DNA of 64,000 nt, taken from Brevibacillus laterosporus LMG 15441. GTDB taxonomy: Bacteria > Bacillota > Bacilli > Brevibacillales > Brevibacillaceae. Within the stretch, counting starts at the first letter, position 1, and each line of letters starts with the position of its first letter. The position numbers and the translations under genes are program-made. A model generated the notes under the pieces. That model worked only from the letters and a program-made list of their open reading frames with translations. It ran no database searches and was not told the origin of the DNA. The stretch lies in contig NZ_CP007806.1 of the NCBI RefSeq assembly GCF_000219535.2, positions 4,066,501-4,130,500 on the forward strand, read 5' to 3'. Of the stretch, positions 4,026-40,590 are shown piece by piece.

Positions 4026-7000
4026 TTAACCAAGTGGTACTGCTAACAGACGTGCCAGATCCCTTACGTTCGGTTCCGCTATGCAACTAAAATGGTTCCC
4101 GCCGATTGCTATTACTTCTAGTTCACCCAGACAAATGTCTGTCCAGAAATCAACGGTCGTCTCATTGGTGCGCGGTAAAAATAGAAACGGCTCGTTTGCC
4201 AACAACAAACGGATGTCCCCCATGTACGGTGGAGGTGTGAAGCGGGCAGCCTTAAAGCTTTGATGAAAGACCTTGCACAAGCCTTCCGCCATTTCAACAG
4301 GCATTTGCTCTCCAGTAGCTTTGGCAATTGCTTCAACATAAGCCGTAAAGCGTTCTCTCCTGTCGAGTGTAGACAATCGTTGGAATAGCTCACCCACCTT
4401 GTCAAGTCCGTCATCCCCGCCGATAGTGCATCCAGAGCCTTGTGGAATAAAATGTCCGTGCTTCTCAATAAGCTGCATGATACCTCGGGCCAAATCATCC
4501 TGTTGAACTCCGCCAAAACCAGCTTGTTCAAGCGTGATATTCAGATTTGGGACGAAGAGTGTTTCAACCAGCAGATCATCATCGAATTCCGTGATAATCG
4601 GCGGAATGTCAATTAGAACTAGGTCTGCGAGATGAATTCCCCGTTCAACAAGGCGTCTGGCTACTTCGATTGCAATTAAACCGCCTAGGGAATAACCAAT
4701 GAGCTGCATCTGCTTTTGACCGCTTTGTAGCAGGCACTCCGCATAATCGTCCGCAACTGCCTCGATGAGTTCGGACGGATCAAGCGCGCAATATCGCTCG
4801 ATATCCGCGATGGCGATTCCCACTACGTTCCCCAAATTCTGTTCTTTTAGTTGTTCCAGAAGTGGACGGAAACTGTCCATTGTACCCAAGACAGCGTGGA
4901 ACACAACTCTCAGTGGGCCTGTCTCCTTGCCCCCAAATGGAATAATGACTGCATTGCTTGAATTTCCCTGATTTTTTAGCCAAGACACTTCCTGATTATG
5001 ACTTTGTTTTCCTTCTGAACTGCGTGAGCGTATGAATTCCGCCAATGCAGCCACGGTCGGATAGTTCAGCATTTGTCTGAGCAGGGCATCAAAAGGAATT
5101 TCCCCGTGTGTTGGGTCCTCAGCCAATTTGTCACGTAGCTTTCCTGCGACTTGCGCCATGATGAGTGAATCAGCACCGTGTTTGTAAAAGCTTTGCGTTC
5201 TGCCGATTCTAGAAATACCCAATGCTTCCGCCCAGACTTGAGCAAGCTGTTCTTCCAGCATGTCCAGACCAGCCTCTTCTGTTTCTGCTATGGTGTTTTG
5301 TACATTCGATGCAGGCCGCCATTTTGCCAATTCACGCCGATCTATCTTGCCGTTTCCGGTAAGTGGAAGTGCATCTACAATTTGCAGATGGGAAGGAAGC
5401 ATATAGGCGGGAAGATGCAAGGAAAGGAAGCTTTCCAACTCATCCGCTCTCACTGGCAATCTGTCCTGTTTAAAACGTTTGGCAAACAGATGGAAGCCTA
5501 GAGAAGAGAGCTTGTTATTTTCTTCAGGTAACGATAGAACATTTTCGTCCCCTTCCTCCTGTAGCAGTTGCATCCATCCTTCATGGTCCAGATAAGAAGT
5601 CTCGGCTCGTAACAGATCGCCCGGCTCCATCATCATAAACGCCTGCGAAGCTAGTATCCATAAGTGCTCCACAGTTGGTTCCGTGAATACGAGCCAGCCT
5701 CCAGGGCAAATGAGTTCTTTCAGCCTGTTCATGCTTGCCGGAATGTCACGTGCGTTTTCCAATACCCCAGCAGCCAGCACCACATCAAAGCTGTTAGGAG
5801 CCAACCCCTGTGCTCGATAATCCTTGTCTACATCAAAAACTCCAAAGCGGACATTTGGGTATTGTCCAAAACGGGCTTTAGCTCCCGGAATGAAAAAGGC
5901 AGCAACATCTGTAAATACATATTCGACATTAAAGCCTTCTAGCGCTTTTAAGACGTTCTCTGTTGTTGCACCGGTACCCGCTCCGACTTCCAAAACCCGC
6001 AAGGTCTTGCCGGTCTGCTGTTGGGCGATGCGTTGTAAAAGTGCGCACATGCACTGATTGAGATAGGTAGCCATGACATGCTCAACATACAAGGAGCGTA
6101 CGTGGTCGAGCTTACCCTCGGGGAATAGCAAGGAAACCGCATCCTGCTGACCACTTAGTAGCTCCGGCAGCTTTTCTGCATTTTTTCGCACATAGGCGGT
6201 AAAGCCCGCTGTTTGAAGCATATTTGTCCACGCTGTCTCTGCCTGTGTCCAATACTCATCTACCGTCTTAGCGTTTTGCAGTATTGAGCAACTGAATTGT
6301 TTTTCAGGGTGCTCAAGCAGCATGCCAGCTTCTGTCAGCTTTGCGATCCAGCGTCGCACAATCCACTGATAACGGGGAAGGATTCCGTCAGATTGCAGAA
6401 TGTCTTCCATTGAATATTTTTCATTATTGGTAAAGAACCCTAGCTTTTGCAGCGCGGCTAGCATGGAATGGAGCACGGCCTGATCAAGGTCAGCCATCGC
6501 CGACTCGATTTCTGCTTTACTCAGTCGATCTGCTACAGCGCTGGCTTGCTCGCCGATCCCGTTTACCAGCATTGTAAATTCGGCATTTTCTGCTTCAGGA
6601 TTCCGGTCTTTTTGGCGATCGGCTTCCACAACACCCAGCAATACTTGTTCATCGCTCGTACTATCTAGCACAACGCCAGCTACGGCGACGGCAGGATGCT
6701 TAAGTAGAGCGGACTCAATTTCACCTAGCTCAATCCGATGTCCTCTGATTTTGACTTGGTTATCCTCGCGGCCCAGAAACTCGATTTCACCGCCGGGGGT
6801 GTAGCGCCCTAAATCTCCGGTACGATAAAGCCGCTCTCCATCTGCATGGTGTAGCAAAAATCGCTCCTGAGTAAGTGCCGGATCACCCGCATAGCCCTCG
6901 GCCAAGCCATGTCCAGTAATATACAGCTCTCCCGTCACCCACACCGGGCAATCACGCATTTGTGAATCTAACACACGGAATCCCTGATTTGCGAGCGGCA

Positions 7001-9542
7001 GACCGTAAGGAATACTGCTCCAGTCAGCTTCAAGACCTTTATATATATGGTAATTGGACCAAATGGAGGCCTCTGTAGCCCCACCCAGACTGACGATTTG
7101 TACAGAAGGCATTCGTTTTTGCATCATGTCAGGTAGCGTCAGAGGAATCCAGTCACCGGAAAGCAGGGCCAGACGCAATGCTGGTACATGTATGCTAGGT
7201 TCAGAATCTAAATAAGTGACCAGCATTTGCATTAAGGCTGGTACCGAATTCCACACGGTAATCCCATGCTCAACCATTAGCTCGGCCCAATGAGATGGGT
7301 CGGTCTGTCGATCGGCATTCGGATAAACTAATGCACCACCAACGGACAGCGGGCCAAAGATATCATAGACGGACAGATCAAAGCTTAGTTGAGCAAGACC
7401 CAGCACGCGATCTTCATTGTTGACAGTAAAGCGGCGATTGATGTCCGCAATGGTATTGGCTGCTGCGCGGTGACTAATGACAACCCCTTTCGGCTGACCA
7501 GTGGAACCAGAGGTGTAGATGATATAAGCTGGTAAGTCTGGATTTGCTGGTGAGTGGATCAGCTTATCCTGAGATGGCTCAACGTTATCCACTTCAATTG
7601 TTTGCAGGTTGCTTGGCAATGGCAGTTGTATTGTGGACATCGTTAAGACAAAGCGGACATTCGCTTGCTCCAGCATAGCCTGACGACGTAATTCTGGCTG
7701 CTTTATGTCAAATGGAACGTAAACAGCCCCAGCTAGTAAAGCACCCAGCACAGCTGTAACCTGATGCGCGCATTTGTCCATCACGATAGCAACGCGATCC
7801 TGATCTTTGCAGCCAAGCTCTTTTAATTTGTTGGCCACAGCATAAGCACGTTTCACCAGCTCTTCGTATGTCATGTGACCTTCGCTATCAAACACGGCAG
7901 GACGGTCTGGATTTGCCAATGCTTGCTTTACTATTTGCTCGTGCAGGCAATAGTCCGGCAAGGGAGCCGCTGTTGCGTTGACACTGTTGCGTTCTGCAAT
8001 CTGCCAGACAGGCAACGTAATCACATCCCCTGTCTCCCAGACTTGCTCGGTTCTAGCCAGCGCATGGAGCAATTCTGCAAACGCATCAAACATGTCGTCA
8101 ATCATTTGATCTGGGAAGACACCCTCTCGCACGTCCCAGTTGACCTGTAGCCCTGCTGAGCTATCCATAGCCTGACAATCGATGAAAACCTGCGGCGTTT
8201 GGCTGATACCGTACCCTGAGATTTTACCTGTTAGCTGGCTGCCTTCCGAGGGTTCAACAAGCCCGATCGCACTTGTAAACACTACAGGCATCAAAGCAGC
8301 TTCACGTCCGTGTCTGCGTGCCATTTCTCGCATAACCTCTACACCAGAAAACAAGCGATGATCCAAATCTTCAAATAGTTGTTTTTGAATGGTACGCGCT
8401 CGTTCTTGGAAGGAGAGCTCCGCATCCAAATCTACGGCAAGCAAATTGACCGATGTAAAATCGCCGACAATATCATGGACTTGCTCATGTAAGGGCTGCC
8501 GGTTTAATAACGTCAGATTCAGACAAAAAGCACTGTTTCGACTCCATCGCTCAATCACAGCGGCATAGGCAGTCATCACAGCAGTTGTTGGTGTCAATCC
8601 ACGTTTTTGAGCTCGTTGCTTGAACGTGTCCCAGGCCGTTTTGTCCAATCGGATGAATCGGCGTTGGAAGCGGGCCTCTCCTGCGTTTTCGTGCTGTCTA
8701 GTTAAAGGTAGGTCTGGAGCTTGGGGCAAAGTATCCATTCGTTGCTGCCAATATTCTTTATCCCTGACGTACGCCGTTGTTTCCTTTAAGCTGCGCTCGG
8801 CGAGTAGATAATCACGGAATGTAAGGGATAGCTCAGGCAACGTTCGTTCTGACTCTTTGTAGAGCATCTCAAATTCCGCCAATAGTAGCCAGATACTTGC
8901 CCAATCGGCGATGAGAAATTCCATGGATACATGAAGCACGGTATTATCACTCATTTTGGTCACGCCAATATCAAACAAGGGCCAACGAGCTGTATCGTAA
9001 ATACGATGCCCCATTTTTTCACGAATGTCCCCAAGTCTGGCTGCTGCCTCCTGTTCAGTCAAGCCGCTGGTGTCGGTATAAGCCACTTCGAAGTGCGGTA
9101 CACTCTCCAGAACGCGCTGCTCTCCATTTTGATCGATCGTTGCCCGTAGCATATCATGGCGAGCTATGAGCAGATTCCAAGCTTCCTGTGTTCGTTTATG
9201 ATCGAGCTTGGGATAGTCTAGTTCCAAATAGATGTGGCATGCCACACCTCCGTAACCAAACAGATCATGGCGTCCCAGCAAATAAGCTGACTGCACATCT
9301 GTCAGCGGGAAAGGTTCAAACCGGGCTTGAGGATCAGATATGACCGTCACTGGTCGTTTTTCGGCACGCAATAGAGCCAAAATATCTTCTTTATGCTCTT
9401 TTAGCGCTTGTAAATCGCCGGCTGCAAGCGTTCCTTTGGGTGCTCTGTAGCGCAGGCTTCCATTTTCTTCCCATAGAAAAATTCCTTCATTGCGAAGGCG
9501 CGTCAGCAACTCGGCACAATTCGTCTTGAGGTTTTGGGGCAT
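4026..9542 (-). CDS. NRPS: docking-Cy-A(MT)-PCP-TE, terminal module
   Basis: 1838 aa; ATG at 9542 with AGGAGTG upstream. Order: TubC-like N-terminal docking domain (1-60); heterocyclisation (Cy) domain (~70-500), whose DxxxxDxxS motif reads EFLIADWAS (Glu for the first Asp, ~212); A domain with YTSGSTGQPKG (~674) and A7/A8 RTGDLGRY/KIRGHRIELGEIE; a methyltransferase inserted between A8 and A9 with an intact SAM motif VLEVGAGTG (~1189); A10 NGKIDRREL; PCP with GADSL (~1458); C-terminal thioesterase with GYSLGG (~1617) and a late GGNHFS histidine. The specificity residues I read (D-L-Y-N-L-S-L-I-W) are the known cysteine code. The layout and length are those of PchF of the pyochelin pathway. 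It should condense and cyclise the last cysteine, possibly methylate, and release the product. Last gene of the Fur-controlled minus-strand operon. Confidence 0.93.
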   Translation of the reverse strand: MPQNLKTNCAELLTRLRNEGIFLWEENGSLRYRAPKGTLAAGDLQALKEHKEDILALLRAEKRPVTVISDPQARFEPFPLTDVQSAYLLGRHDLFGYGGVACHIYLELDYPKLDHKRTQEAWNLLIARHDMLRATIDQNGEQRVLESVPHFEVAYTDTSGLTEQEAAARLGDIREKMGHRIYDTARWPLFDIGVTKMSDNTVLHVSMEFLIADWASIWLLLAEFEMLYKESERTLPELSLTFRDYLLAERSLKETTAYVRDKEYWQQRMDTLPQAPDLPLTRQHENAGEARFQRRFIRLDKTAWDTFKQRAQKRGLTPTTAVMTAYAAVIERWSRNSAFCLNLTLLNRQPLHEQVHDIVGDFTSVNLLAVDLDAELSFQERARTIQKQLFEDLDHRLFSGVEVMREMARRHGREAALMPVVFTSAIGLVEPSEGSQLTGKISGYGISQTPQVFIDCQAMDSSAGLQVNWDVREGVFPDQMIDDMFDAFAELLHALARTEQVWETGDVITLPVWQIAERNSVNATAAPLPDYCLHEQIVKQALANPDRPAVFDSEGHMTYEELVKRAYAVANKLKELGCKDQDRVAIVMDKCAHQVTAVLGALLAGAVYVPFDIKQPELRRQAMLEQANVRFVLTMSTIQLPLPSNLQTIEVDNVEPSQDKLIHSPANPDLPAYIIYTSGSTGQPKGVVISHRAAANTIADINRRFTVNNEDRVLGLAQLSFDLSVYDIFGPLSVGGALVYPNADRQTDPSHWAELMVEHGITVWNSVPALMQMLVTYLDSEPSIHVPALRLALLSGDWIPLTLPDMMQKRMPSVQIVSLGGATEASIWSNYHIYKGLEADWSSIPYGLPLANQGFRVLDSQMRDCPVWVTGELYITGHGLAEGYAGDPALTQERFLLHHADGERLYRTGDLGRYTPGGEIEFLGREDNQVKIRGHRIELGEIESALLKHPAVAVAGVVLDSTSDEQVLLGVVEADRQKDRNPEAENAEFTMLVNGIGEQASAVADRLSKAEIESAMADLDQAVLHSMLAALQKLGFFTNNEKYSMEDILQSDGILPRYQWIVRRWIAKLTEAGMLLEHPEKQFSCSILQNAKTVDEYWTQAETAWTNMLQTAGFTAYVRKNAEKLPELLSGQQDAVSLLFPEGKLDHVRSLYVEHVMATYLNQCMCALLQRIAQQQTGKTLRVLEVGAGTGATTENVLKALEGFNVEYVFTDVAAFFIPGAKARFGQYPNVRFGVFDVDKDYRAQGLAPNSFDVVLAAGVLENARDIPASMNRLKELICPGGWLVFTEPTVEHLWILASQAFMMMEPGDLLRAETSYLDHEGWMQLLQEEGDENVLSLPEENNKLSSLGFHLFAKRFKQDRLPVRADELESFLSLHLPAYMLPSHLQIVDALPLTGNGKIDRRELAKWRPASNVQNTIAETEEAGLDMLEEQLAQVWAEALGISRIGRTQSFYKHGADSLIMAQVAGKLRDKLAEDPTHGEIPFDALLRQMLNYPTVAALAEFIRSRSSEGKQSHNQEVSWLKNQGNSSNAVIIPFGGKETGPLRVVFHAVLGTMDSFRPLLEQLKEQNLGNVVGIAIADIERYCALDPSELIEAVADDYAECLLQSGQKQMQLIGYSLGGLIAIEVARRLVERGIHLADLVLIDIPPIITEFDDDLLVETLFVPNLNITLEQAGFGGVQQDDLARGIMQLIEKHGHFIPQGSGCTIGGDDGLDKVGELFQRLSTLDRRERFTAYVEAIAKATGEQMPVEMAEGLCKVFHQSFKAARFTPPPYMGDIRLLLANEPFLFLPRTNETTVDFWTDICLGELEVIAIGGNHFSCIAEPNVRDLARLLAVPLG

Positions 9543-9609
9543 ATGTACACACTCCTATTTTTTGAGCTTGACCATTTCGGTATAGATGGATGACGCTACA
9601 GCAATGCTG

Positions 9610-11940
9610 CTATACGTCAGCATCCGCTTCCTTCCTGACAACAAATAGCTTTTGTCCCAGGGGAGCGAGCGGATGCTCTTCATTCGGCAGTATGACAAAC
9701 TCCTTGGCACCTGCGCCCTGTATAACATCAGTCCACTGCTGAACAGACATGAAGGTTGATTGCGTGTTTTTCCGATCGTCCTCAGGAGGAGTCATCATAA
9801 AGGCCTGTGAAATCAGCATCTCCACAAATTCCCGAGTAGGCTCTGTAATGACCAACCATCCTCCCGGAACAAGACTTTGCATGAGATTGCGGATGACCTG
9901 ATCCGTGTCGCGAGCATTGTTCAGCATGCCTGCCGCAATAACGATATCGATGCTTTCAGGTGTCAATCCCTGCTCAAACAGATCTTTGTCAATATCGACA
10001 GTCTGGAATCGCATCCAAGGGTAATCTTTGAAGCGTTCACGAGCTGTTGATAAGAAAAAGTGAGACACATCTGTATACAGATAATCCAGATTCAACTGTT
10101 TGGAAACAGATGCATTCAGCCGCTCCACAACTACATCCGTGGTTGCTCCCGTCCCTGCACCTACCTCCAGAATGCGTAGAGAAGCCTTAGAGGCAGTAGA
10201 CAAAGAAGAGGACGTAGACAAAGAAGAGGACGTAGCCTGTTTGATAGCAGCGATTCGCATCACCGCTTCTGCTACCGATTTATTTAAATACCGCGCTATA
10301 AGCGTATCCCGATACAGAGCATTAGCAACATTCATGCGTCCCTTGGGAAATAATAGCAATGCGGCCTGTTGACTATCATTCATCAGCTCCGGGAGTTTAT
10401 CGGCATTAGCCATGAGATAGTCGATGACCATCGGAGAGCCAAGTTTTCCGTTCCATGCTTCCTTAACTAACTCCCAACGATACTGCACCTCATCTGCTGT
10501 CATCTGAATCGAGCATTGATACTTTTTATCGGACTGCGTTATATAACCGCGATCCGTCAATATCTGTAACCAACGCATAATGACAGGCTGATGACGTGAT
10601 GCTACCTTTGCGACAGAGAAAATGTCTTCCATTCTATATTCCTGTTCGGCTGTTATAAGCGCTCCTTGCGATTGCAAGGCAAACAGCATGGAAGATAAAG
10701 CTGCTTCATCTAGTCGTTCAATGCAGATTCTCACTTGTTCAGCGTCAATCCCTCTCCATTCTTTCTCAGCATATGCTGTGCAAGAAAATACATCATTTTT
10801 AGTCAAAGGATCGACTGATGACTCGGTATGATCACCTGCATCTTCCGCAATACGAAAGGCAGCTTCCTGTAAAGACTCTATCGACAACGGTTGATGACTG
10901 CTGTTGGAGCGTAGCACTGGATATCCCAATGCCTGAGTCCAATCCTGCCACTGACGGGAGCATAAAAGCTCCTGTTGCGCCTGTGTATCCATTACAGACT
11001 TGTCAACCTGCCCGAAGATCATCTCCCGCATTGCTAATAAATCCCTACCGATGGCCCGGGGCCACTGCGTCAATAGAATGTCCTTATAGCTGATAGGCTC
11101 TGCTGGTCCCAATATTTGCGTGCTATTTCCAAGTAGGTGTGCGGGTGGTTCCGCTGACAGTTGCTCATGAATGTTCGGAAGATCCGGAACATGCAAACGC
11201 GGCTGCCACACAACAGGACCATGCGTATCTGTAAGTGACAAACTGCCACCTGCCACGCCAATTGTTACCCGATGCAGTAAATGAAGGTGGTTGTCCGGAT
11301 CATGCGGATCAACCTCATTATGGGCCCGCAGGGTAATCGGAATTTTTCCAAGCAGGCCGGTTAACACTTGAAACGGTCCCTCATCCTTGATGACATGACT
11401 GATTTTCCATGGACGAATGGTCGGCAATGCTTCTTGCAGGATGTGCATCAGCGGGAAAGAAACCTGAGTGGAACACACAGCATCAATGTATAGGGCTGGT
11501 TGTTGTTGTAGCATTGTCTGGGCGCATGCAATAAAACGGCGCACAGCAGGCAAATGTACATAGAGATCTCCTGTCTTGAAATGTACGCCATGCTGTCGCG
11601 CTACCTTGAGGCAAAGAGCTAAGTCTTTGTGATGGATCGGCTGTTCAGAAATGACGTGAATGTTGCGAGCAAGCAGTTTAAGCGACATTTCAGTGCCATT
11701 GCCGCCCATGACTGTGGAGCGTACTACGACGCAAGCAAGATCAATATCGTCAGGAAGTTGCTCAATATCTGTATATAACTCAATACCGTAACGTTCTGCG
11801 CAACTTCGGGAGCGCTCGCTGCCCTTTGCCAATAAACCTACCAATTCAAACTGTTCTGGCAATGCTTTAACAGCCTCCAGATAGAACTGTCCAAATCGGG
11901 AACCACATACCACGGTACGCAACCTACGATTCTCTATCAT
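9610..11940 (-). CDS. thiazolinyl imide reductase fused to an NRPS-type methyltransferase
   Basis: 776 aa, ATG at 11940 with AGAGGTGG upstream. Residues 1-~360 are a PchG/YbtU(Irp3)-like thiazolinyl imide reductase of the Gfo/Idh/MocA fold (start VVCGSRFGQFYLEA, then HVISEQPIHHKD and GDLYVHLPAVRRF), which reduces a carrier-bound thiazoline to thiazolidine with NADPH. Residues ~400-776 repeat the domain normally inserted in the A domains of these NRPSs: a helical/winged part (LDEAALSSMLFALQ, MEDIFSVAKV) and a SAM methyltransferase with an intact ILEVGAGTGATT (~590) and LVPGGWLVITEPTRE. PchG and YbtU are only about 350-370 aa, so the fusion is unusual. A linker just before the MT core carries a duplicated SSSLST segment. 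It lies 9 bases after the saccharopine-dehydrogenase-like gene and 67 bases before the terminal NRPS. Confidence 0.9.
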   Translation of the reverse strand: MIENRRLRTVVCGSRFGQFYLEAVKALPEQFELVGLLAKGSERSRSCAERYGIELYTDIEQLPDDIDLACVVVRSTVMGGNGTEMSLKLLARNIHVISEQPIHHKDLALCLKVARQHGVHFKTGDLYVHLPAVRRFIACAQTMLQQQPALYIDAVCSTQVSFPLMHILQEALPTIRPWKISHVIKDEGPFQVLTGLLGKIPITLRAHNEVDPHDPDNHLHLLHRVTIGVAGGSLSLTDTHGPVVWQPRLHVPDLPNIHEQLSAEPPAHLLGNSTQILGPAEPISYKDILLTQWPRAIGRDLLAMREMIFGQVDKSVMDTQAQQELLCSRQWQDWTQALGYPVLRSNSSHQPLSIESLQEAAFRIAEDAGDHTESSVDPLTKNDVFSCTAYAEKEWRGIDAEQVRICIERLDEAALSSMLFALQSQGALITAEQEYRMEDIFSVAKVASRHQPVIMRWLQILTDRGYITQSDKKYQCSIQMTADEVQYRWELVKEAWNGKLGSPMVIDYLMANADKLPELMNDSQQAALLLFPKGRMNVANALYRDTLIARYLNKSVAEAVMRIAAIKQATSSSLSTSSSLSTASKASLRILEVGAGTGATTDVVVERLNASVSKQLNLDYLYTDVSHFFLSTARERFKDYPWMRFQTVDIDKDLFEQGLTPESIDIVIAAGMLNNARDTDQVIRNLMQSLVPGGWLVITEPTREFVEMLISQAFMMTPPEDDRKNTQSTFMSVQQWTDVIQGAGAKEFVILPNEEHPLAPLGQKLFVVRKEADADV
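10196..10231. repeat. 18-bp in-frame tandem duplication
   Basis: The unit GTAGACAAAGAAGAGGAC occurs twice head to tail and encodes a repeated Ser/Leu/Thr linker just before the SAM-binding core of the fused methyltransferase. A recent slippage event in a flexible linker is likely. Confidence 0.9.
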
Positions 11941-11949
11941 ATGCCACCT

Positions 11950-13065: not shown

Positions 13066-13195
13066 TGGTCTCTCTCCCTTTCCAGCCTGACTCTGTGCGC
13101 TAGCCTTCAAAGAGAAGACAAGGCTGACGATTGGCAAAAAGTCACTGTTTCCTTGTTCATTCTCCCTGAAGACAACGCAGGTCAGTTTTAGTTAA

Positions 13196-22303: not shown

Positions 22304-22330
22304 CAGAGTTACCACCTTCCCAGGCAATGC

Positions 22331-25324: not shown

Positions 25325-25431
25325 TATGTCCTCCTCTTGAATACCTGCGGGTCAATCATTGTGCACCCAAAGCGGGATTATGCAGGGTACTGTCAATCTG
25401 GTTGCAAGATCGTGATGGTTTGTCTAACAAT

Positions 25432-25460
25432 ACGATATTGATAATGATAATCATTGTCAA
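25432..25460 (-). promoter_or_regulatory. Fur-regulated promoter of the biosynthetic operon
   Basis: The minus strand shows -35 TTGACA (25455-25460), a 17-base spacer and -10 TATCGT (25432-25437). The Fur box GATAATGATAATCATTGTC (25440-25458) fills the spacer and matches 18 of 19 positions of the consensus. Iron-loaded Fur would block RNA polymerase directly. The leader to the ATG at 25324 is about 100 bases. Confidence 0.9.
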
Positions 25461-25461
25461 T

Positions 25462-25864: not shown

Positions 25865-26647
25865 TTAGCTGTCCCTTCTTGAAAGCGTTCGTTCTTTTTG
25901 CTGTGAAATGATTTTTGTAACGGATTGCATAAGCCTCTCCCTTTTTGCTGTCAAAAAGAAATGATCCCCTTCAATCATCTCAAGCGTAAAATCAGAGCTG
26001 GTATGACCCTCCCAAGCTTCCATCTCCTCTCGATTCGCCTCCGTATCCTCAGTCCCGCAAAATGCAGAAATCGGGCATTTGAGGAGTGCTTCCTCTGCAT
26101 ACACGTACGTTTCGTCTACAGCAAAATCCGCTCGCAATACCGGGAGAAACAGGTTCATGAGCTCCCTGTTTTGCAAAATTGCCTCGGGAGTACCGGAAAA
26201 ACGGCGCAGTTCACTGACAAATTCATCATCAGGCAAATGGTGCAAAGGATGTGGCTCTGGTATGTTTGGAGCTCGACTACCTGAAACAATCAGGCGGCAA
26301 GGCTGGAGCTTCCATTTTCTTCGAACAGCTCGTGCAAGCTCAAAAGCAATTCGCGCTCCTAAGCTATGACCAAAAAAGAGAAATGGGCGATCCAAATACG
26401 GATAAATTGCCTGAGAGATTGCTTCCACTAGCGCCTCCATGTCACATAGAGCCTGTTCCCCAATCCTGTTCTCCCTTCCTGGAAGCTGGATAGGGTACAC
26501 TCCAATATCCCGGGGCAGCGTATTTGCCCAGCCTCGGTAAGCTGATGCCCCTCCTCCTGCATAGGGCAAGCAGAAAAGACGAATAGTGTCTTTCGCTTCA
26601 GGATGAGAAATCAGCCATGGAGTGGCTGCTTGATCAGTTTCCAACAT
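25865..26647 (-). CDS. type II thioesterase (YbtT/GrsT-like)
   Basis: 260 aa alpha/beta hydrolase; ATG at 26647 preceded by GGGGGAG. Motifs: FCLPYAGGGASAYRGW (oxyanion region, ~30), nucleophile GHSLGARIAFELAR (Ser ~95), the acid region CGTEDTEANREEM and the histidine in IEGDHFFL. Enzymes of this type clear wrongly primed or stalled acyl groups from NRPS carrier proteins. The separate Fur box upstream (26781) shows it belongs to the same iron regulon, although 540 bases separate it from the next biosynthetic gene. Confidence 0.9.
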   Translation of the reverse strand: MLETDQAATPWLISHPEAKDTIRLFCLPYAGGGASAYRGWANTLPRDIGVYPIQLPGRENRIGEQALCDMEALVEAISQAIYPYLDRPFLFFGHSLGARIAFELARAVRRKWKLQPCRLIVSGSRAPNIPEPHPLHHLPDDEFVSELRRFSGTPEAILQNRELMNLFLPVLRADFAVDETYVYAEEALLKCPISAFCGTEDTEANREEMEAWEGHTSSDFTLEMIEGDHFFLTAKRERLMQSVTKIISQQKERTLSRRDS

Positions 26648-26780
26648 AACTCCCCCATTCTTTCCATCAGTCGAGTCGGGCGCTAAGCTCCACCATGTTT
26701 TTTAACAAGCTCTTTTAGGAGAGCGTCACTGGATCTGTGCTACTTCGACCTTCGACCATAGTGGATATGAATATTCATTT

Positions 26781-26799
26781 GATAATGATTATCATAATC
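26781..26799 (-). promoter_or_regulatory. Fur box upstream of the thioesterase gene
   Basis: GATAATGATTATCATAATC matches 17 of 19 positions of the Fur consensus and sits about 135 bases before the thioesterase ATG. I cannot place unambiguous -35/-10 elements here. Confidence 0.8.
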
Positions 26800-27139
26800 A
26801 TATTAACGCTAAATTTACAAAATCTGCATTTGATCTATTTTTTGTAAATTTACCTAGTTTTCCTCCATTATCTCGTCCTAGGTCCATCAGATTGACTTTT
26901 TTGCAGATTATGCCAGTTTCTTGAGTAACGACGTTGATTGTCGCCAAGCATGATCGGGTCAAAAGGGCGTCATTTCTTTGTCTTCTCGCTTCATGCTACT
27001 GGCTCGACTATCGTCTCCCTTTTTCTAAATTCCAGTTTCTGGAGTCCAAATTTTGGGGATTGATCAAGAAATACGAAGAAACATCGAGATATTTGGCGAA
27101 AATAGCAGGAATATCTGCCAAAATATAGGCTTTTCCACT
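26800..27139. other. AT-rich divergent intergenic region
   Basis: About 340 bases between the two transport/biosynthesis promoters. No gene, repeat or terminator can be supported. Small ORFs present lack ribosome-binding sites. Confidence 0.5.
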
Positions 27140-27168
27140 TTGACGATGATTCTCATTATCAATATTGT
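27140..27168 (+). promoter_or_regulatory. Fur-regulated promoter of the transport operon
   Basis: -35 TTGACG (27140-27145), 17-base spacer, -10 TATTGT (27163-27168). The spacer holds a Fur box GACGATGATTCTCATTATC (27142-27160), 15 of 19 matches, in the same register as at the biosynthetic promoter. The leader to the first ATG (27409) is about 235 bases. It contains an AGGAGG with no start codon after it (about 27311) and a CGGCA/TGCCG hairpin, so extra post-transcriptional control is possible. Confidence 0.75.
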
Positions 27169-27408
27169 AATTCTATACCAGTTTTATTACGTTTTACGTG
27201 AGACTGGCTACATAATTGTTTCACTTGCATTTCAAAAAAGGGAATAGAGGGGGCTTTTATTGATTTGAAGGGTACGATTTGAGTTGAAATAAAGGCTCAT
27301 GTCAACAGACAGGAGGCAAAAGAAAACAATTCGGCAGTACAGGAAATCCCGCCTAACAGCCTCAGCGGATGCCGATCGACTACATGTGAAAAAACAGGAG
27401 GATTTAAC

Positions 27409-28011
27409 ATGCAAACACAGACAGAAATCTCTCAAAACAGATGGAAAATGCGTGATTTCATTACACTTGCCATTTTCAATGTGGTGATGCTCATTATTAT
27501 GACGATTTGTCCAATCTTTACGGTTGTTTCTTATCTGGTTGTAGGAGGAGCCGCTGCACTGTTTAATGGGCCGATCTATATGGTTATGTCCAACAAAATT
27601 AACAAACGCGGTGTACTGTTCTTTACGTGCATCATTACAGGCTTGTATTTCGTAGCTTTTGGTTATGCTTATTATCTGCTTACACTAGCTGTGATCGGAA
27701 TTATCTGCGAATTAATTCTTTGGGGAGGCGCTGCCTATAAGAGCACTGCCCGCAATGCCATTGGATACGCTATTTTTTATGTTGGCTGGTCTCTTTGCGG
27801 CGTTGTACCGCTTATTTTCTTCCGCGAGCAATATTTAGCTATTTTGAAGAAAAGCTACTCTCCAGAACAGCTTGAAGCCATGCTTTATTATTTTGATACG
27901 CCAAGCATGATTCTGATCATGTGCACAATCTCTGCTATCGGTGGGCTAGTTGGTTGCTTTATCGGGAATTTGCTGATGAAAAAACATGTGAAAAAGGCAA
28001 AGCTGGTATGA
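27409..28011 (+). CDS. ECF transporter S component, MptD/Trep_Strep family
   Basis: 200 aa, ATG with AGGAGG upstream. About six hydrophobic segments with short loops (residues ~18-45, 52-65, 70-95, 98-115, 122-143, 165-187). The pattern, including the CPIFTVVSYLVVGGAAALFNGPIYM segment (split over ~40-65), fits the MptD/Trep_Strep putative substrate-binding subunits of energy-coupling factor importers. It is the first gene of the Fur-controlled plus-strand operon and overlaps the EcfT gene by ATGA. Its place in a metallophore locus suggests that it recognises the ferric or other metal complex; this is inference. Confidence 0.8.
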   Translation: MQTQTEISQNRWKMRDFITLAIFNVVMLIIMTICPIFTVVSYLVVGGAAALFNGPIYMVMSNKINKRGVLFFTCIITGLYFVAFGYAYYLLTLAVIGIICELILWGGAAYKSTARNAIGYAIFYVGWSLCGVVPLIFFREQYLAILKKSYSPEQLEAMLYYFDTPSMILIMCTISAIGGLVGCFIGNLLMKKHVKKAKLV

Positions 28012-28688
28012 GCATTCTTGGTCCCAAAACGCATTTATTGGTGCTGATTTTAACAAGTATCCTCTCCACGCTTGTGAGCAGTTCATTGCAGGCACATTTG
28101 ATGGTGCTTGCTTGCGCACTGTATTTGATTTGCAACAAACAGCCCAGAAAGGCGCTGTTTTTTGTGCTGTCATATATCGCTCTAATGACGATTTTAACAA
28201 TTCTGCCAGAAGGTGCAGGAACAATCATTATTATTCTCTATACGTTTGCCAGAACGGTTCCGATGGTCATGATCGGGACAATGCTGATGATTTCGACTCC
28301 AAGCAGTATCATGTGTGCCTTTGAACGGTTACGCATCCCAAAAGCTGTGCTTATCATGGTCTGCATTCTGAACCGCTTTTTTCCGGTTGTTTGGCTTGAA
28401 ATGAAAGCAATTCGAAATGGCATCAGGGCCAGAGGCATTTTTCCCCAGTGGTATAGCGCTCTCTTACATCCAGCCATGGCCTACGAGTGCTTTTTTATGC
28501 CGTTGATCGTCCGTTGCCTTAAGCTATCGACTGAATTAGCCTCGTCCGCAGAACTGCGGGGCATTGAGTGCGGCTGCGCCAGAACCTCTATCCATCCAGT
28601 AGGCTTTCGGGCCATAGACGGCATGGCGGTGGTGCTTTATACGCTGACCGGGACAGCGATTTATTGGACAGGAGGTCTGAACTTGTGA
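28008..28688 (+). CDS. EcfT-type transmembrane coupling protein (CbiQ family)
   Basis: 226 aa starting at the ATG that overlaps the stop of the S component (ATGA). Several N-terminal hydrophobic helices (LLVLILTSILSTLVSS, LMVLACALYLICN, ALFFVLSYIALMTIL), then a cytosolic coupling part with the IRNGIRARG and SAELRGIE motifs. These Ala-Arg-Gly-type helices are what EcfT proteins insert into the ATPase grooves. One more helix lies near the C-terminus. It should link the S component to the double ATPase that follows by another overlap. Confidence 0.85.
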   Translation: MSILGPKTHLLVLILTSILSTLVSSSLQAHLMVLACALYLICNKQPRKALFFVLSYIALMTILTILPEGAGTIIIILYTFARTVPMVMIGTMLMISTPSSIMCAFERLRIPKAVLIMVCILNRFFPVVWLEMKAIRNGIRARGIFPQWYSALLHPAMAYECFFMPLIVRCLKLSTELASSAELRGIECGCARTSIHPVGFRAIDGMAVVLYTLTGTAIYWTGGLNL

Positions 28689-30130
28689 TTGAGTTAAACA
28701 GCGTCACCTTCCGCTATGAACATGAAGGCGGAGAAGCCGAGAACGAAAACGGTGTAAAGCAAATCAATTTAGCTGTAAAGGCTGGGCAATGCGTTGTGCT
28801 TTGCGGCCGTTCAGGCTGCGGTAAAAGTACGATCATGCGCCTGATCAACGGACTTGCACCCAGCTTTTATGCTGGTAGCCTCACTGGACAGGTACATGTT
28901 GGCGGAAGAAGTCCTGCCTCTCTTAGTCCAGAGGAACGAACCAGACTCATGGGTGTTGTGTTTCAAGACCCCCGTAGCCAGTTTTTCATGGAAACCGTGC
29001 GGGACGAGCTGGCGTTTTCAGCCGAAAACCTCGGCGTTTCGCCACAAGAGATTATGAACCGAATAGAAAAACAAGCGAAAGAGCTAGATATCTTTCATTT
29101 GCTCGACCGTCCTCTTCATATGCTATCTAGTGGACAGAAACAACGGGTGGCCATTGCGGCAGTGTCTGTTCTTTCACCACCACTTCTGATGCTTGACGAG
29201 CCTACTGCCAATCTAGATCATCACTCTACGCAGAATCTGATTGAAATCCTGAGTAGGCTTAAGAAAAACGGCACTACCCTCTTCATCAGCGAGCATCGGT
29301 TACACCCATTCTTGCCTGTTGCCGATCTATTTGTCTGCATGGATAAAGGAAAGATCGCACGAACATGGACGAAAGAAAAATTTGCTCAGCTTTCCTATGA
29401 AGACGTACGTCCATATGGTCTGCGCCACCCTGATATGATTACATGCCTATCGGAACACAAATCAACTGAAGTGCCGAAGTCCCTCCCTGCTCTGGAGGGT
29501 CGGAAGCTTACCTATCGATACAAAAGAAAAGGTGATGGGATTACAGACGTTGACATCACGCTTTTGAAAGGAGAGGTTACCGCACTGACAGGGGAAAACG
29601 GAACGGGAAAAACCACCCTAAGCAAAGTTCTGTGCGGTCTTCTGCGCCAGCAAAAAGGGGTGATTTTCAGTCAAGGAAGCCGATTATCGGCAAGCCAACG
29701 ACGCGCCTCCAGCTATCTTGTCATGCAGGATGCCGACTATCAGCTCTATGCAGACAGTGTAGGCAATGAGATTGTTTTAGGCAGACGTGTGGATGATTCG
29801 CTTCGTTTGAAGGCCTATGAGGCATTGGATGCCTTTGGCTTAGGAGAGCTTCGAGATCGGCACCCTGCCTCCCTTTCCGGCGGAGAAAAGCAGCGAGTAA
29901 CCATGGCCGCGGCTTATTGTTCAGATGCGGAATTAATCATACTCGACGAGCCGACCAGCGGACTTGACGGCGACAGCGTACTCAAGGTTGTTGCATGGGT
30001 AAAAAAATTAGCGCAGGCTGGCAAAATCGTCCTCATCATTACGCACGACAACATCCTTTCCGAATTAGCCTGCGATCAAGTCATTGAACTGAAGAATCGG
30101 CAGAAAGAAGTGATAACTGTTGAAAGCTAA
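28685..30130 (+). CDS. double ATP-binding protein of the ECF importer (EcfA-EcfA' fusion)
   Basis: 481 aa from GTG at 28685, overlapping the EcfT stop by 4 bases. Two complete ABC ATPase domains in tandem: the first has Walker A GRSGCGKST (~42), signature LSSGQKQRV and Walker B LLMLDEPTANLD; the second has GENGTGKTT (~300), LSGGEKQRV and LIILDEPTSGLD. Fused EcfA pairs are known in this transporter class. It energises the S/EcfT pair encoded just upstream. The stop overlaps the next gene by 11 bases, so translation is coupled. Confidence 0.9.
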   Translation: MIELNSVTFRYEHEGGEAENENGVKQINLAVKAGQCVVLCGRSGCGKSTIMRLINGLAPSFYAGSLTGQVHVGGRSPASLSPEERTRLMGVVFQDPRSQFFMETVRDELAFSAENLGVSPQEIMNRIEKQAKELDIFHLLDRPLHMLSSGQKQRVAIAAVSVLSPPLLMLDEPTANLDHHSTQNLIEILSRLKKNGTTLFISEHRLHPFLPVADLFVCMDKGKIARTWTKEKFAQLSYEDVRPYGLRHPDMITCLSEHKSTEVPKSLPALEGRKLTYRYKRKGDGITDVDITLLKGEVTALTGENGTGKTTLSKVLCGLLRQQKGVIFSQGSRLSASQRRASSYLVMQDADYQLYADSVGNEIVLGRRVDDSLRLKAYEALDAFGLGELRDRHPASLSGGEKQRVTMAAAYCSDAELIILDEPTSGLDGDSVLKVVAWVKKLAQAGKIVLIITHDNILSELACDQVIELKNRQKEVITVES

Positions 30131-31931
30131 GGAAAAAAAGGGAATTTCAAGGCTAATCGAGCTTGCCGGTGAAAAAAAGTCACTTATGGTGTGGTCAGCA
30201 ATTCTGTCTACCGTAAGCGTGTTTTTGATGCTGGTTCCGTATCTCTCAGTCTACTATGTGATGACTGAGCTTTTAACACATGCTTCTGATATTTCCTCTG
30301 TGAACGCTGCGTACATCCTACAGTGGGCTATTTGGGGCATTGTAGGTATGCTACTGGGTTATTTCTTCATGTATGTCGGCGGAATGCTTTCGCACATTGC
30401 CGCTTTTCGCATCCTCTATGGCATTAGAGTCAAGCTGTCAGATCATATCGGGGCGCTCCCTCTTGGCTACTTTACTAAAAATGCTACAGGTAAAATCAAA
30501 AAAATCGTTGAGCTGGATGTAGAAAAAATCGAACTGTTCATCGCCCATCAGCTACCCGATTTGATTAACACGATCGTCATGATCATAGCAATTATTGTCA
30601 CGATGTTTTCACTTAATATTTGGCTTGCACTGGCTTGCATCATCCCCATGCTGATTGGATTTGCCGCCCAATTCTCCATGATGGCCGGCAAAAAAGCAAA
30701 GCAGGGATTGAAGGAGTATTTTGACGCGCTAGAAAACATTAATACTTCATCCATCCAGTACGTACGGGGGATGCCTTCTATCAAAATCTTTGGGCAAACC
30801 GTTCACTCTTTTCGAAAATTCCATGAAGACATGTTGCATTACCGTAATTTTAGTGTGACTTATACAGATAATTTTCAAAACGGCTATGTTTCCTTTAAAG
30901 TCATCCTTTTATCATTAGCAACTTTCTTTTTACCTGTCGGACTGTTTTTTATCAGCACAGATCCACATAACATCGCCTTTGCCGCAACATTGCTGTTTTT
31001 TCTCGTTTTGTCACCAGGTATTTCCACGCCGATTTTCAAATTAAACAGCTTTGCCTCCACCCTTAACACGATTGTTGAAGGGGTTAACCGCATTGACGGT
31101 ATGTTCAAGGAAACAACCATCAAAGAACCTGAAATCGGCAAAAAGCCATCGTCTTATGACATCGGCTTCCATGAGGTTTCCTTTTCATACGGAGATGAAG
31201 GCAGCCCAGAGGTTTTGCAGGGAATCAGCTTTATGGCGCCCCAGGGCAAAATCACTGCGCTGGTCGGCCCATCCGGTTCGGGAAAATCCACTGTCGCCCA
31301 GTTAATCCCACGGTTTTGGGACGTGCAAAAAGGAAGCATCACCATTGGCGGCGTGGATATCCGCGACATGAAAATGAATGAGCTAATGGACACCCTGTCC
31401 TTTGTCTTTCAGGATACGTTTCTGTTTTCCGATACACTCTACAATAATATTTTGGCGGGCAGGCCAACTGCAACGCAGGATGAGGTCTATGAAGCAGCGA
31501 GGGCAGCGCAATGTCATGAATTTATTGAGCGTTTGCCAAATGGTTACGATACGCTAATTGGCGAGGGCGGGGTTTATCTGTCAGGCGGCGAGGAACAGCG
31601 AGTATCTGTGGCAAGAGCCATCCTGAAGAATTCCCCTATTCTTGTACTCGATGAAGCTACCGCTTATGCAGATCCGGAAAATGAATACCAGATGCAGCTT
31701 GCGCTACGCGAGCTTATCAAGGACAAAACGGTATTGATCATTGCCCATCGTTTGACAACTATATGCGAAGCAGATCAGATCATTGTCCTAAAGGAAGGGC
31801 AAATCGACGATCTCGGAACCCATAGCGAGCTTCTTGCTCATAATGGTTTATATAAAAGCATGTGGGACGCCTATACATCCTCAGCAGAATGGAAAATCGA
31901 CATTTCGCAGAAGGAGGGGGAATTCGTGTGA
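30120..31931 (+). CDS. ABC half-transporter, YbtP/IrtA-like
   Basis: 603 aa, TTG start inside the end of the EcfA gene. Exporter-type fold: six-helix membrane domain (residues ~1-320), then an ATPase with GPSGSGKST, Q-loop FQDTFLFSDTLYNNI, signature LSGGEEQRVSVARA, LVLDEATAYADPENE and IIAHRL, all intact. YbtP/YbtQ and mycobacterial IrtA/IrtB have this exporter fold but import ferric siderophores. By position beside a second half-transporter and within a metallophore locus, uptake is the likely role; export of the metallophore is the alternative. No siderophore-interaction (SIP) domain is present. Confidence 0.88.
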   Translation: MKAKEKKGISRLIELAGEKKSLMVWSAILSTVSVFLMLVPYLSVYYVMTELLTHASDISSVNAAYILQWAIWGIVGMLLGYFFMYVGGMLSHIAAFRILYGIRVKLSDHIGALPLGYFTKNATGKIKKIVELDVEKIELFIAHQLPDLINTIVMIIAIIVTMFSLNIWLALACIIPMLIGFAAQFSMMAGKKAKQGLKEYFDALENINTSSIQYVRGMPSIKIFGQTVHSFRKFHEDMLHYRNFSVTYTDNFQNGYVSFKVILLSLATFFLPVGLFFISTDPHNIAFAATLLFFLVLSPGISTPIFKLNSFASTLNTIVEGVNRIDGMFKETTIKEPEIGKKPSSYDIGFHEVSFSYGDEGSPEVLQGISFMAPQGKITALVGPSGSGKSTVAQLIPRFWDVQKGSITIGGVDIRDMKMNELMDTLSFVFQDTFLFSDTLYNNILAGRPTATQDEVYEAARAAQCHEFIERLPNGYDTLIGEGGVYLSGGEEQRVSVARAILKNSPILVLDEATAYADPENEYQMQLALRELIKDKTVLIIAHRLTTICEADQIIVLKEGQIDDLGTHSELLAHNGLYKSMWDAYTSSAEWKIDISQKEGEFV

Positions 31932-33670
31932 TAAGGGAACAGCTTTACAACATTACTACGGGTGAACCAAAGAAAATATGGAAGCCCATCCTTTGGACTG
32001 TTTTGGCCAACTTAGTCAATATATTTCCATTCGGATGCCTGGCCGCAGCAGTAAGTATGATTTATGCCTACTATGCGACAGGACAATCCTCTTTGAACAT
32101 GCAAACTCTCTGGCTCATATGGGGAGGCATGCTATTTTTCCTTGTCCTTGTGTTTCTATGTGAGCGGATGTCTTACCGTTCTACCTACCGCAGTGCGTAC
32201 GAATCTTCTGCTGATGGACGGACACAGCTAGCAGAGCATATGCGCAAGCTCCCTTTAGGATTCCTCATGAAAAAGGACCCCGGAGAACTTGGCCATATGA
32301 TGATGAATGATTTTACTCATTTAGAAAATGCCGCGACAAATATTCTACCTCAGCTTGTAAGCGGTGCGATTATCCCCATTTTGACCTTCTTTGGTCTGCT
32401 GTTTATAGACTGGCGAATGGCTGTAGCTATGCTTGCAGGGTTACCCGTAGCTGTGCTGTTGCTATGGAGTATTTCCGGTTTAGAACGAAAACTTGGCAAG
32501 AGTCACTCCGCTGCCAAGATCGTTTTGGCAAATTGTTTGCAGGAATACCTGTTAGGGATGAAAGTAATCAAGGCATACAATCTGCGCGGTGAGAACTTTA
32601 CAAGATTAAAACAGTCTTTTTATCGTTATATGAAGGAAAGCATTAAGCTGGAGGGTGCGCTAGGGCCATTCTTTTTAGTTGCCATGGCCTTTATGCAAAC
32701 TGGCGTGTCTTTAATGACCATCGTGGGAGTTTATCTCATATTGGGCGGAGAAATTTCAGTTCCTCTGTTTGCTACATTCTTGTTAGTGGGTACTCGTGTT
32801 TTTGATCCACTATCGGTTGCTATCATGCGCCTGCCAGCGTTCAAATATGATGCCATGGCTGGAGAACGCATCGTTAGTCTATTAAATGAGCCTGTCATGA
32901 AGGGTGAAAACGAACCTCCCGAAGCTCATGATATCCGCTTTGACAGCGTGACCTTTAGCTACGACAAGAACATCGTACTAGACAATGTTTCTATGGAAAT
33001 GAAGGAAGGGACGCTTACCGCGATCGTTGGCCCTTCAGGAAGTGGAAAAAGCACACTGCTGCGCCTGATTGCACGATTTTACGACCCTCAACAAGGGAAA
33101 GTGCTGTTTGGCGGTAGCGATGTAAGTGAAATGGACCCAGAAAAGCTTATGAAAAAAATCTCCATGGTATTTCAGGACGTTTACTTGTTCCAGGACACAA
33201 TCGGCAACAATATCCGCTATGGACGCGAGAACGCTACGCAAGCAGAAATTGAGGAAGCTGCTAAAGAAGCTTGCTGCCATGATTTTATCATGAAGCTGCC
33301 TCAGGGTTATGACACCATGATCGGGGAAGGTGGTTCTACGCTCTCTGGTGGCGAACGTCAACGCATTTCCATCGCCAGAGCCATACTCAAAAATGCCCCC
33401 GTGATCCTGCTTGATGAGGCCACCTCCTCGCTCGATCCAGAAAACGAGGTGGAAATGCAAAGAGCAATCAATCGCCTGATTAAAAAACGTACCGTCATCA
33501 TGATCGCTCACCGATTGAAAACCGTGGTCAACGCAGACAAAATTATCGTGCTGGACAAAGGCAAAATCGTCGAAGAAGGGCAGCATGAGGAGCTTATCCA
33601 AAACGCGGGGTTATATGCGAAGCTGTGGGAGCTTCAGACCAAAACGAATGGCTGGAGAATTACGGCCTAA
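31928..33670 (+). CDS. ABC half-transporter, YbtQ/IrtB-like
   Basis: 580 aa from GTG at 31928, with AAGGAGGGGG upstream and a 4-base overlap with the preceding gene. Membrane domain of about six helices (~20-300), then an ATPase with GPSGSGKST, FQDVYLFQDTIGNNIRYG, LSGGERQRISIARAI, ILLDEATSSLDPENE and MIAHRL. All catalytic motifs look intact, so with the previous protein it should form a heterodimer with two working ATP sites. Last gene of the transport operon, followed by a strong terminator. Confidence 0.88.
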   Translation: MIREQLYNITTGEPKKIWKPILWTVLANLVNIFPFGCLAAAVSMIYAYYATGQSSLNMQTLWLIWGGMLFFLVLVFLCERMSYRSTYRSAYESSADGRTQLAEHMRKLPLGFLMKKDPGELGHMMMNDFTHLENAATNILPQLVSGAIIPILTFFGLLFIDWRMAVAMLAGLPVAVLLLWSISGLERKLGKSHSAAKIVLANCLQEYLLGMKVIKAYNLRGENFTRLKQSFYRYMKESIKLEGALGPFFLVAMAFMQTGVSLMTIVGVYLILGGEISVPLFATFLLVGTRVFDPLSVAIMRLPAFKYDAMAGERIVSLLNEPVMKGENEPPEAHDIRFDSVTFSYDKNIVLDNVSMEMKEGTLTAIVGPSGSGKSTLLRLIARFYDPQQGKVLFGGSDVSEMDPEKLMKKISMVFQDVYLFQDTIGNNIRYGRENATQAEIEEAAKEACCHDFIMKLPQGYDTMIGEGGSTLSGGERQRISIARAILKNAPVILLDEATSSLDPENEVEMQRAINRLIKKRTVIMIAHRLKTVVNADKIIVLDKGKIVEEGQHEELIQNAGLYAKLWELQTKTNGWRITA

Positions 33671-40526: not shown

Positions 40527-40590
40527 CAAAAAAGTGAAGCAACCCACTCTTAAGCTGACAAGAGCTAGGATGGGACAGGAGGACATTATT

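What the first reader, a model, noticed from the sequence alone, without database searches (positions are those of the whole stretch)
4026..33670. Complete iron-regulated locus for a salicylate + three-cysteine metallophore without PKS
Domain order gives ArCP plus three Cy-A-PCP modules and a terminal TE, with salicylate made and activated in-locus. Pyochelin uses two cysteines and yersiniabactin needs a malonyl (PKS) module, so the product should be a tris-thiazoline/thiazolidine. Ulbactin-type polycyclic thiazolines are known from Brevibacillus and would fit, but the match is inference. The locus pairs synthesis with its own divergent uptake operon.
Basis: partly seen in the sequence, partly recalled or inferred. 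Interest (0 to 1): 0.85.

Follow-up and report, generated by a model that had tools for sequence, protein, structure and literature searches.

The report
Three-cysteine salicylate metallophore gene cluster
A soil bacterium of the Brevibacillus laterosporus group carries a complete, apparently iron-controlled set of genes for making and moving a small metal-grabbing molecule built from salicylate and three cysteines; this kind of system is already known, but this version keeps a methylating part that several close relatives have lost.

Summary
Window 4026-33670 carries an intact salicylate-primed, three-cysteine NRPS cluster with no PKS found, plus a divergent transport operon. A Fur-type site lies before each of the three transcription units, so 'iron-regulated' is well supported. 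The kind is known: equibactin (2008) is salicylate plus three cysteines without PKS; mupirochelin and sorangibactin clusters share the reductase/methyltransferase set; two papers report ulbactin F/G-like clusters in B. laterosporus by antiSMASH. The fresh point: inserts 1 and 2 have a broken SAM motif but keep a His/Glu pair (epimerase-like), while insert 3 and the reductase-fused domain keep the SAM motif and lack that His; these letters fall into separate clades. Insert 3 is eroded in B. fortis, B. porteri and B. formosus but intact here, so the product is predicted to carry one methyl group more than theirs. New member of a known kind; no product was observed.

The parts
4026..9542 (-). NRPS2: TubC-type docking - Cy3 - A3 (Cys-type code DLYNLSLIW) - inserted M3 (SAM motif LEVGAGTGATT, Glu at the His position) - PCP3 - type I TE (GYSLGG)
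9610..11940 (-). REDMT: thiazolinyl imine reductase (YbtU/Irp3-like) fused to a SAM methyltransferase (LEVGAGTGATT, Asn at the His position)
11950..13137 (-). SDH: saccharopine-dehydrogenase-family protein; probable second ring C=N reductase (inferred)
   Evidence: family counterparts EqbM, SrbE, MchE in papers
13196..22327 (-). NRPS1: ArCP - Cy1 - A1 (Cys-like code DLYNMSMIW) - inserted M1 (LEIGARSGALT, His kept) - PCP1 - Cy2 - A2 (DLYNLSLIW) - inserted M2 (LEIGTRVGDLT, His kept) - PCP2
   Evidence: A2 position 278 and PCP1 read by eye
22331..25324 (-). SALSYN: salicyl-AMP ligase fused to salicylate synthase in one 997-aa protein; Cys and Ile at the two positions that separate salicylate from DHB ligases, as in PchD
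25439..25459 (.). Fur-type site pair upstream of SALSYN, overlapping a promoter-like site
25865..26647 (-). TE2: type II thioesterase (GHSLG); proofreading role inferred
26780..26800 (.). Fur-type site (perfect 7-1-7 plus an overlapping second) upstream of TE2, overlapping a promoter-like site
27141..27161 (.). Fur-type site (3 and 2 mismatches, overlapping) upstream of the divergent transport operon, overlapping a promoter-like site
27409..28011 (+). ECF transporter S component (Trep_Strep / MptD family)
27921..28688 (+). ECF transporter T component (CbiQ family); true start probably inside the listed ORF (inference)
28568..30130 (+). Double ATPase of the ECF set (two ABC_tran stretches)
30120..31931 (+). 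ABC transporter, membrane part and ATPase fused; YbtP/Q- or EqbK/L-like by anatomy (recalled), direction of transport not shown
31862..33670 (+). Second ABC transporter, membrane part and ATPase fused

Best explanation
A complete, Fur-type-regulated locus for a metallophore of the ulbactin / equibactin / coelibactin class. Proposed path: chorismate to salicylate to salicyl-AMP on the fused ligase-synthase (domains shown, activity inferred); carrier domains activated by a PPTase encoded elsewhere in the genome (genes shown, link inferred); three rounds of cysteine condensation and cyclodehydration by Cy1-Cy3 (domains and codes shown); epimerisation at Cys1 and Cys2 by inserts M1 and M2 (inferred from a broken SAM motif with a kept His/Glu pair, as in PchE); reduction of rings 2 and 3 to thiazolidines by RED and SDH (RED by family, SDH inferred); methylation, probably on ring nitrogens, by the RED-fused MT and M3 (inferred); release by the terminal TE; re-uptake of the metal complex by the ECF set and/or the ABC pair (inferred). 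The salicyl-capped three-cysteine class is the firm part; number and place of methyl groups are the soft part.
For: Domains and cut-offs; catalytic motifs; Cys-type A codes (A2 position 278 by eye); salicylate-type ligase residues in the alignment to DhbE and PchD; PchE homology over ArCP-Cy-A, 779 bits; three Fur-type sites kept in G003 and G004; synteny and open frames in G003 and G004 and, for the biosynthetic genes, G406; four M-domain groups with distinct active-site letters; PPTase-family hits elsewhere in the genome, 3, two of them in 240-aa frames; published counterparts of SDH, two of them needed for product (EqbM, SrbE); published PKS-less three-Cys design; antiSMASH ulbactin F/G calls in B. 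laterosporus; a paper states that ulbactin biosynthesis in Pseudoalteromonas uses two novel thiazolinyl imine reductases (one sentence seen), which fits a two-reductase scheme but does not say which families.
Against: No product was seen, and the MIBiG ulbactin cluster could not be compared. Cy3 has Glu for the first Asp of DxxxxDxxS, though 11 of 16 selected relatives share it. The His/Glu reading of the inserts rests on alignment to CurJ and AprA; PchE's E domain was not aligned, its active His and Glu are 30 residues apart against 26 here (counted by eye), and the N-methylating domain of PchF was not tested. The promoter-like sites are only 7 against 4.1 (sd 1.8) in shuffles. SDH-like neighbours also occur in 3 of the 5 loci with a ketosynthase motif, so SDH does not mark PKS-less clusters. 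One PchG/YbtU-type reductase suffices in pyochelin and yersiniabactin (recalled). In G406 only the S component of the transport operon was found in the 9 kb on that side, so the full transport set is not fixed to this cluster.
Confidence: 0.8

Rival explanations
1. The product is ulbactin F/G itself; M3 is silent or serves another step.
For: antiSMASH reports ulbactin F/G-like clusters in B. laterosporus and 100% similarity in some B. brevis strains; the biosynthetic genes of G406, whose NRPS2 has the eroded M3, are otherwise the same at 62-80% identity.
Against: M3 here has an intact SAM motif and is 95% identical in L024, while it is eroded in B. fortis, B. porteri and B. formosus; being kept suggests use. 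Which state the MIBiG reference has is unknown.
Confidence: 0.3
2. The product mainly serves another metal (zinc, copper) or acts as a bioactive compound, iron being secondary.
For: Mupirochelin binds Zn and is a weak siderophore; equibactin gave no CAS signal; ulbactins F/G are reported for activity on tumour cells.
Against: Three Fur-type sites, one before each unit; the equibactin locus raises 55Fe uptake.
Confidence: 0.2
3. The line releases a shorter, pyochelin-like salicyl-di-cysteine product, module 3 being weak because of the Cy3 Asp-to-Glu change.
For: Cy3 motif is EFLIADWAS.
Against: 11 of 16 selected loci have the same Glu; docking, A3, PCP3 and TE of module 3 are present with their motifs.
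Confidence: 0.1

Closest known systems
Ulbactin F/G cluster (MIBiG BGC0002472)
   Same: Ulbactins F/G come from a Brevibacillus sp.; antiSMASH names this cluster in B. laterosporus (passages only)
   Different: Reference cluster not held, so no gene-by-gene comparison; if it is like B. formosus/porteri/fortis its M3 is eroded (inference)
Equibactin (eqbA-N, Streptococcus equi; PMC3672683, passages)
   Same: Salicylate plus three Cys, three Cy domains, no PKS, saccharopine-dehydrogenase-family EqbM, thiazoline reductase, type II TE, transporter genes
   Different: Equibactin has one A domain, no salicylate synthase, a TE with Ala for Ser, its own PPTase gene and a DtxR-like regulator; here three A domains, fused salicylate synthase, TE serine present, no PPTase gene found in the locus, Fur-type sites
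Mupirochelin / sorangibactin / coelibactin clusters
   Same: Saccharopine dehydrogenase (all three); NRPSs, thiazolinyl imine reductase and methyltransferases in the mupirochelin cluster, NRPSs and methyltransferases in sorangibactin (passages)
   Different: Those have a P450 and, in mupirochelin and sorangibactin, stand-alone methyltransferases; sorangibactin and coelibactin have a Cys-type TE; sorangibactin has an oxazole and mupirochelin a predicted oxazoline first ring. Here Cys-type codes in all three modules, Ser-type TE, MT fused to the reductase. Annotated plasmid clusters of this look (L022, L023) and L097 keep His in the M3-like domain
Yersiniabactin
   Same: Salicylate cap; YbtU-like reductase (33% identity); fused ABC transporter pair (recalled)
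   Different: Needs a malonyl PKS module; none found here
Pyochelin
   Same: PchE-like first module, PchD-like ligase
   Different: Two cysteines only; separate PchA/PchB salicylate route (recalled)

Membership tests
Salicyl-capped thiazoline NRPS metallophore | Salicylate synthase and salicyl-AMP ligase in the locus | tested here: met
   TIGR03494 437 bits over cut-off 325; ligase residues as PchD
Salicyl-capped thiazoline NRPS metallophore | Cy domains with DxxxxDxxS and Cys-type A domains | tested here: met
   Cy1, Cy2 exact, Cy3 with Glu for the first Asp; codes DLYNMSMIW, DLYNLSLIW, DLYNLSLIW (A2 position 278 by eye; cysteine code recalled)
Salicyl-capped thiazoline NRPS metallophore | Product binds metal | not testable with these tools
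   needs the compound
Equibactin-type (salicylate + 3 Cys, no PKS) | Three Cy modules and no PKS | tested here: met
Equibactin-type (salicylate + 3 Cys, no PKS) | Single A domain, TE lacking Ser, DtxR-like regulator in the locus | tested here: not met
   three A domains, TE GYSLGG, no DtxR-type family among the 26 scanned window proteins
Yersiniabactin | Malonyl PKS module | tested here: not met
   no KS/AT family in the 26 scanned proteins, which include every ORF over 320 aa
Pyochelin | Two-cysteine line | tested here: not met
   three Cy-A-PCP modules
Ulbactin F/G cluster | Gene-by-gene match to BGC0002472 | not testable with these tools
   MIBiG record not held; only passages naming it or the compounds
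Ulbactin F/G cluster | Produces ulbactin F/G | not testable with these tools
   needs LC-MS
Coelibactin/sorangibactin type | P450 and Cys-type TE | tested here: not met
   TE is GYSLGG; no P450 family among the 26 scanned window proteins
PchE-type inserted epimerase (M1, M2) | MT fold, SAM motif lost, catalytic His kept | tested here: inconclusive
   Arg in the SAM motif with His kept in 30 of 32 M1-type and 26 of 28 M2-type rows, window included; PchE itself not aligned over this domain

The most novel reading that the evidence does not exclude
The cluster makes an undescribed salicyl-thiazoline with two N-methylated thiazolidines, each reduced ring having its own reductase/N-methyltransferase pair (RED with its fused MT; SDH with M3). 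Part of the B. brevis group lost M3 by in-frame erosion, giving a natural methylation switch between sister species that could tune metal choice or keep rivals from taking up the compound.
Probability: 0.3. Interest if true: 0.5.

Novelty: new member of a known kind. Interest (0 to 1): 0.35.

Why it matters
It offers a complete Gram-positive version of the equibactin/coelibactin design, whose products have been hard to isolate, with its own salicylate supply. The split of inserted methyltransferase-like domains into epimerase-like and methyltransferase-like groups gives a simple sequence rule to test, and the eroded M3 in sister species gives a natural comparison of more and less methylated product.

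Tried and rejected
Considered and rejected: a PKS hidden in the window (no family found); SDH as a mark of PKS-less clusters (SDH-like neighbour in 63 of 80 loci, including 3 of 5 with a KS motif; flanks of 10 kb or less miss genes); C-methylation by M3 as in yersiniabactin (M3 has Glu where CurJ/AprA have His; the C-MT His/Glu rule is recalled); pseudogene decay (frames open in G003 and G004); phage carriage (no phage match for REDMT); viral-contig relatives (none); a PPTase relic between TE2 and SALSYN, where G406 has a PPTase gene (no match in the window, G003 or G004 gap). No tRNA and no Rfam match in the window.

Results that cut hits down: one search gave 5 of 398 phylum genomes with a REDMT hit at E 1e-20, but G350, G070 and G318 match only the methyltransferase part, so 2 of 398 (own and G321) match the reductase. 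In one search 4 of 5 genus genomes hit, but G001 is a 30% ligase match, so 3 of 5 carry the fused protein. Fur sites with at most 2 mismatches were looked for in G003, G004, G350, G321 and 8 loci: found in G003, G004, G321 (two weak), L040, L053, L062; none in G350, L024, L026, L028, L033, L034, whose fetched stretches may not reach the promoters; G406 has two weaker sites and G402 four. Scripts kept only hits over set E-values and lengths; one search printed only hits over 45% identity (lower ones).

Papers: PMC3672683, PMC10080011, PMC10127202, PMC8807600, PMC7344775, PMC12503217, PMC13308469, PMC12971057, PMC11083829, PMC12654256, PMC11316579, PMC12819058, PMC10077240 and PMC5367025 were seen as passages; Gu 2025 (J Agric Food Chem) and Igarashi 2016 (Org Lett) only as citations and in sentences of other papers; others only in search listings. 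In the listings of searches (25 of 72 shown), 83 and 84 I saw no paper that announces a product isolated from this B. laterosporus cluster; full texts were not read, so this is not proof that none exists.
Full report
The window lies in G000, a 5.15 Mb genome. G004's contig C4 has the same length, 140981 bases, as a contig of Brevibacillus laterosporus MSSRFCCT15 in genome contigs (L024), and G004 proteins of the locus are 93-98% identical to the window's. I therefore take the host as the B. laterosporus group (inference).

Anatomy. On the minus strand, in order of transcription: TE2, the fused ligase-synthase SALSYN, NRPS1, SDH, REDMT, NRPS2; on the plus strand an ECF-type S, T and double-ATPase set and two fused ABC transporters. 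SALSYN matches DhbE (1md9) over residues 2-529 and PchD (7tyb) over 6-528, and MbtI/Irp9 salicylate synthases over about 555-985; in the alignment to DhbE and PchD it has the Cys and the Ile that favour salicylate over 2,3-DHB (rule as given in PMC3672683). NRPS1 aligns to PchE over ArCP-Cy-A. The A-domain codes read DLYNMSMIW, DLYNLSLIW and DLYNLSLIW, the cysteine type (the Asn at position 278 of A2 was missed by the script's pattern and read by eye; the cysteine code is recalled). No PKS family was found in the 26 window proteins scanned, which include every ORF over 320 aa. PPTase-family genes lie elsewhere in the genome (3 hits).

Regulation. Fur-type sites lie at 25439-25459, 26780-26800 and 27141-27161, each overlapping a promoter-like site; promoter-like sites as such are barely above chance (7 against 4.1, sd 1.8). 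With at most one mismatch there are 4 Fur matches in 64 kb (25439, 25445, 26780, 59468) against a mean of 0.03 in 60 simulations; with at most two there are 7 against 0.58, maximum 3. All three locus sites recur in G003 and G004; G406 has two weaker ones. Equibactin differs: its locus has its own DtxR-like repressor.

The inserts. Each A domain holds an inserted methyltransferase-like domain, and the reductase is fused to another. Among 174 such domains from the window, the 80 genome-contig loci and 3 plasmid loci, 30 of 32 M1-type and 26 of 28 M2-type rows have Arg in the SAM motif and keep the His; 63 of 65 M3-type rows have the intact GxG, with Glu (34), His (19), Asp (5) or Ala (5) at the His position, and 2 have Arg; 45 of 49 reductase-fused-type rows have GxG with Asn, 2 with Asp, 2 with His (types are by best window query). 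The Glu of the pair is present in all four window domains. On a quick tree of 164 of these rows (the 10 under 250 aa left out) the letter pairs cluster: 10 changes in all against a shuffled mean of 93; the tree has long branches and 47 of 161 inner branches are weak. PchE's inserted epimerase has an MT-like fold with active-site His and Glu (PMC8807600 passages). So M1 and M2 look like epimerases, and M3 and the fused domain like working methyltransferases. That the missing His points to nitrogen rather than carbon methylation is inference from C-methyltransferases of the CurJ/AprA kind; PchF was not tested.

The eroded domain. In B. fortis, B. porteri and B. formosus (L026, L027, L031) NRPS2 frames are 1605-1627 aa; the alignment shows shared deletions through M3 and a degraded motif, with A, PCP and TE kept. 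In the family, 12 of 39 genomes have the NRPS2 TE at E 1e-40: 5 in frames of 1841-1843 aa, 6 in frames of 1605-1627 aa (judged by length; of these only G406 was read), and G402 in a 1182-aa frame that still holds an M3-like stretch, with no other biosynthetic gene of the cluster found in the 38 kb fetched. Aneurinibacillus, B. gelatini, B. parabrevis and several Paenibacillus keep M3, so loss is probably the derived state. G406 differs further: it has a PPTase gene between TE2 and SALSYN, and on the transport side only the S component was found in the 9 kb fetched.

Spread. The reductase profile found 115 loci in genome contigs, of which the best 80 were kept: Brevibacillus, Aneurinibacillus, Paenibacillus, Pelosinus, Sporomusa, Clostridium, Streptomyces, Fibrobacter and others. 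The reductase is fused to a methyltransferase in 41 of 80, an SDH-like neighbour lies in 63 of 80, and a ketosynthase motif lies within reach in 5 of 80. The ligase-synthase fusion recurs in G003, G004 and G406 and, as far as the stretch goes, in Sporomusa sp. KB1; in G350 ligase and synthase are separate.

Comparison with the known. Equibactin already is salicylate plus three cysteines without PKS, with a saccharopine-dehydrogenase-family gene needed for activity. The mupirochelin cluster has SDH, reductase and methyltransferases, the sorangibactin cluster SDH and methyltransferases, and sorangibactin has tandem N-methyl-thiazolidines. Two papers name ulbactin F/G-like clusters in B. laterosporus and one gives 100% similarity in some B. 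brevis strains. A sentence in PMC12819058 says that two novel thiazolinyl imine reductases are essential for thiazolidine formation in the ulbactin analogs of a Pseudoalteromonas. The finding is thus real and well read, but of a known kind. What is fresh is the insert classification and the M3 difference between sister species, which yields a testable prediction of one extra methyl group here.

Noticed in passing
L021 (CP032834.1 50986-87688): Klebsiella pneumoniae plasmid pINF237_01-VP carries a related cluster: a CDS annotated salicylate synthase whose N-terminal part matches the window ligase at 51%, a reductase-MT fusion (reductase 48%), two NRPSs, TonB receptors. Two papers mention strain INF237 and siderophores (search listing only).
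   Followed up: partly
L029, L033, L038, L069, L083: Terminal TE has Cys (GYCLGG, in L083 GYCMGG) in place of Ser, as reported for coelibactin/sorangibactin, whereas the Brevibacillus and Aneurinibacillus loci in the same table have Ser.
   Followed up: no
G402:C1:1792200-1795745 (in L120): Only a C-terminal NRPS2 remnant of the cluster was found in this Brevibacillus-family genome.
   Followed up: partly
L121:11039-11803: G406 has a PPTase-family gene between TE2 and SALSYN, as equibactin has one in its locus; the window has none there.
   Followed up: partly
window 8895-8921: Cy3 has Glu for the first Asp of DxxxxDxxS; 11 of 16 selected relatives share it.
   Followed up: partly
window 40534-42015: Biopterin-dependent aromatic amino acid hydroxylase family protein.
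   Followed up: no
window 59468-59482: Isolated Fur-type site (1 mismatch) with no clear large gene next to it; the nearest long ORF is an S-layer SbsC-type repeat protein at 59842-61959.
   Followed up: no
G321 contig C60 (L017, L071): Reductase fused to two methyltransferase domains in one 1228-aa frame.
   Followed up: no
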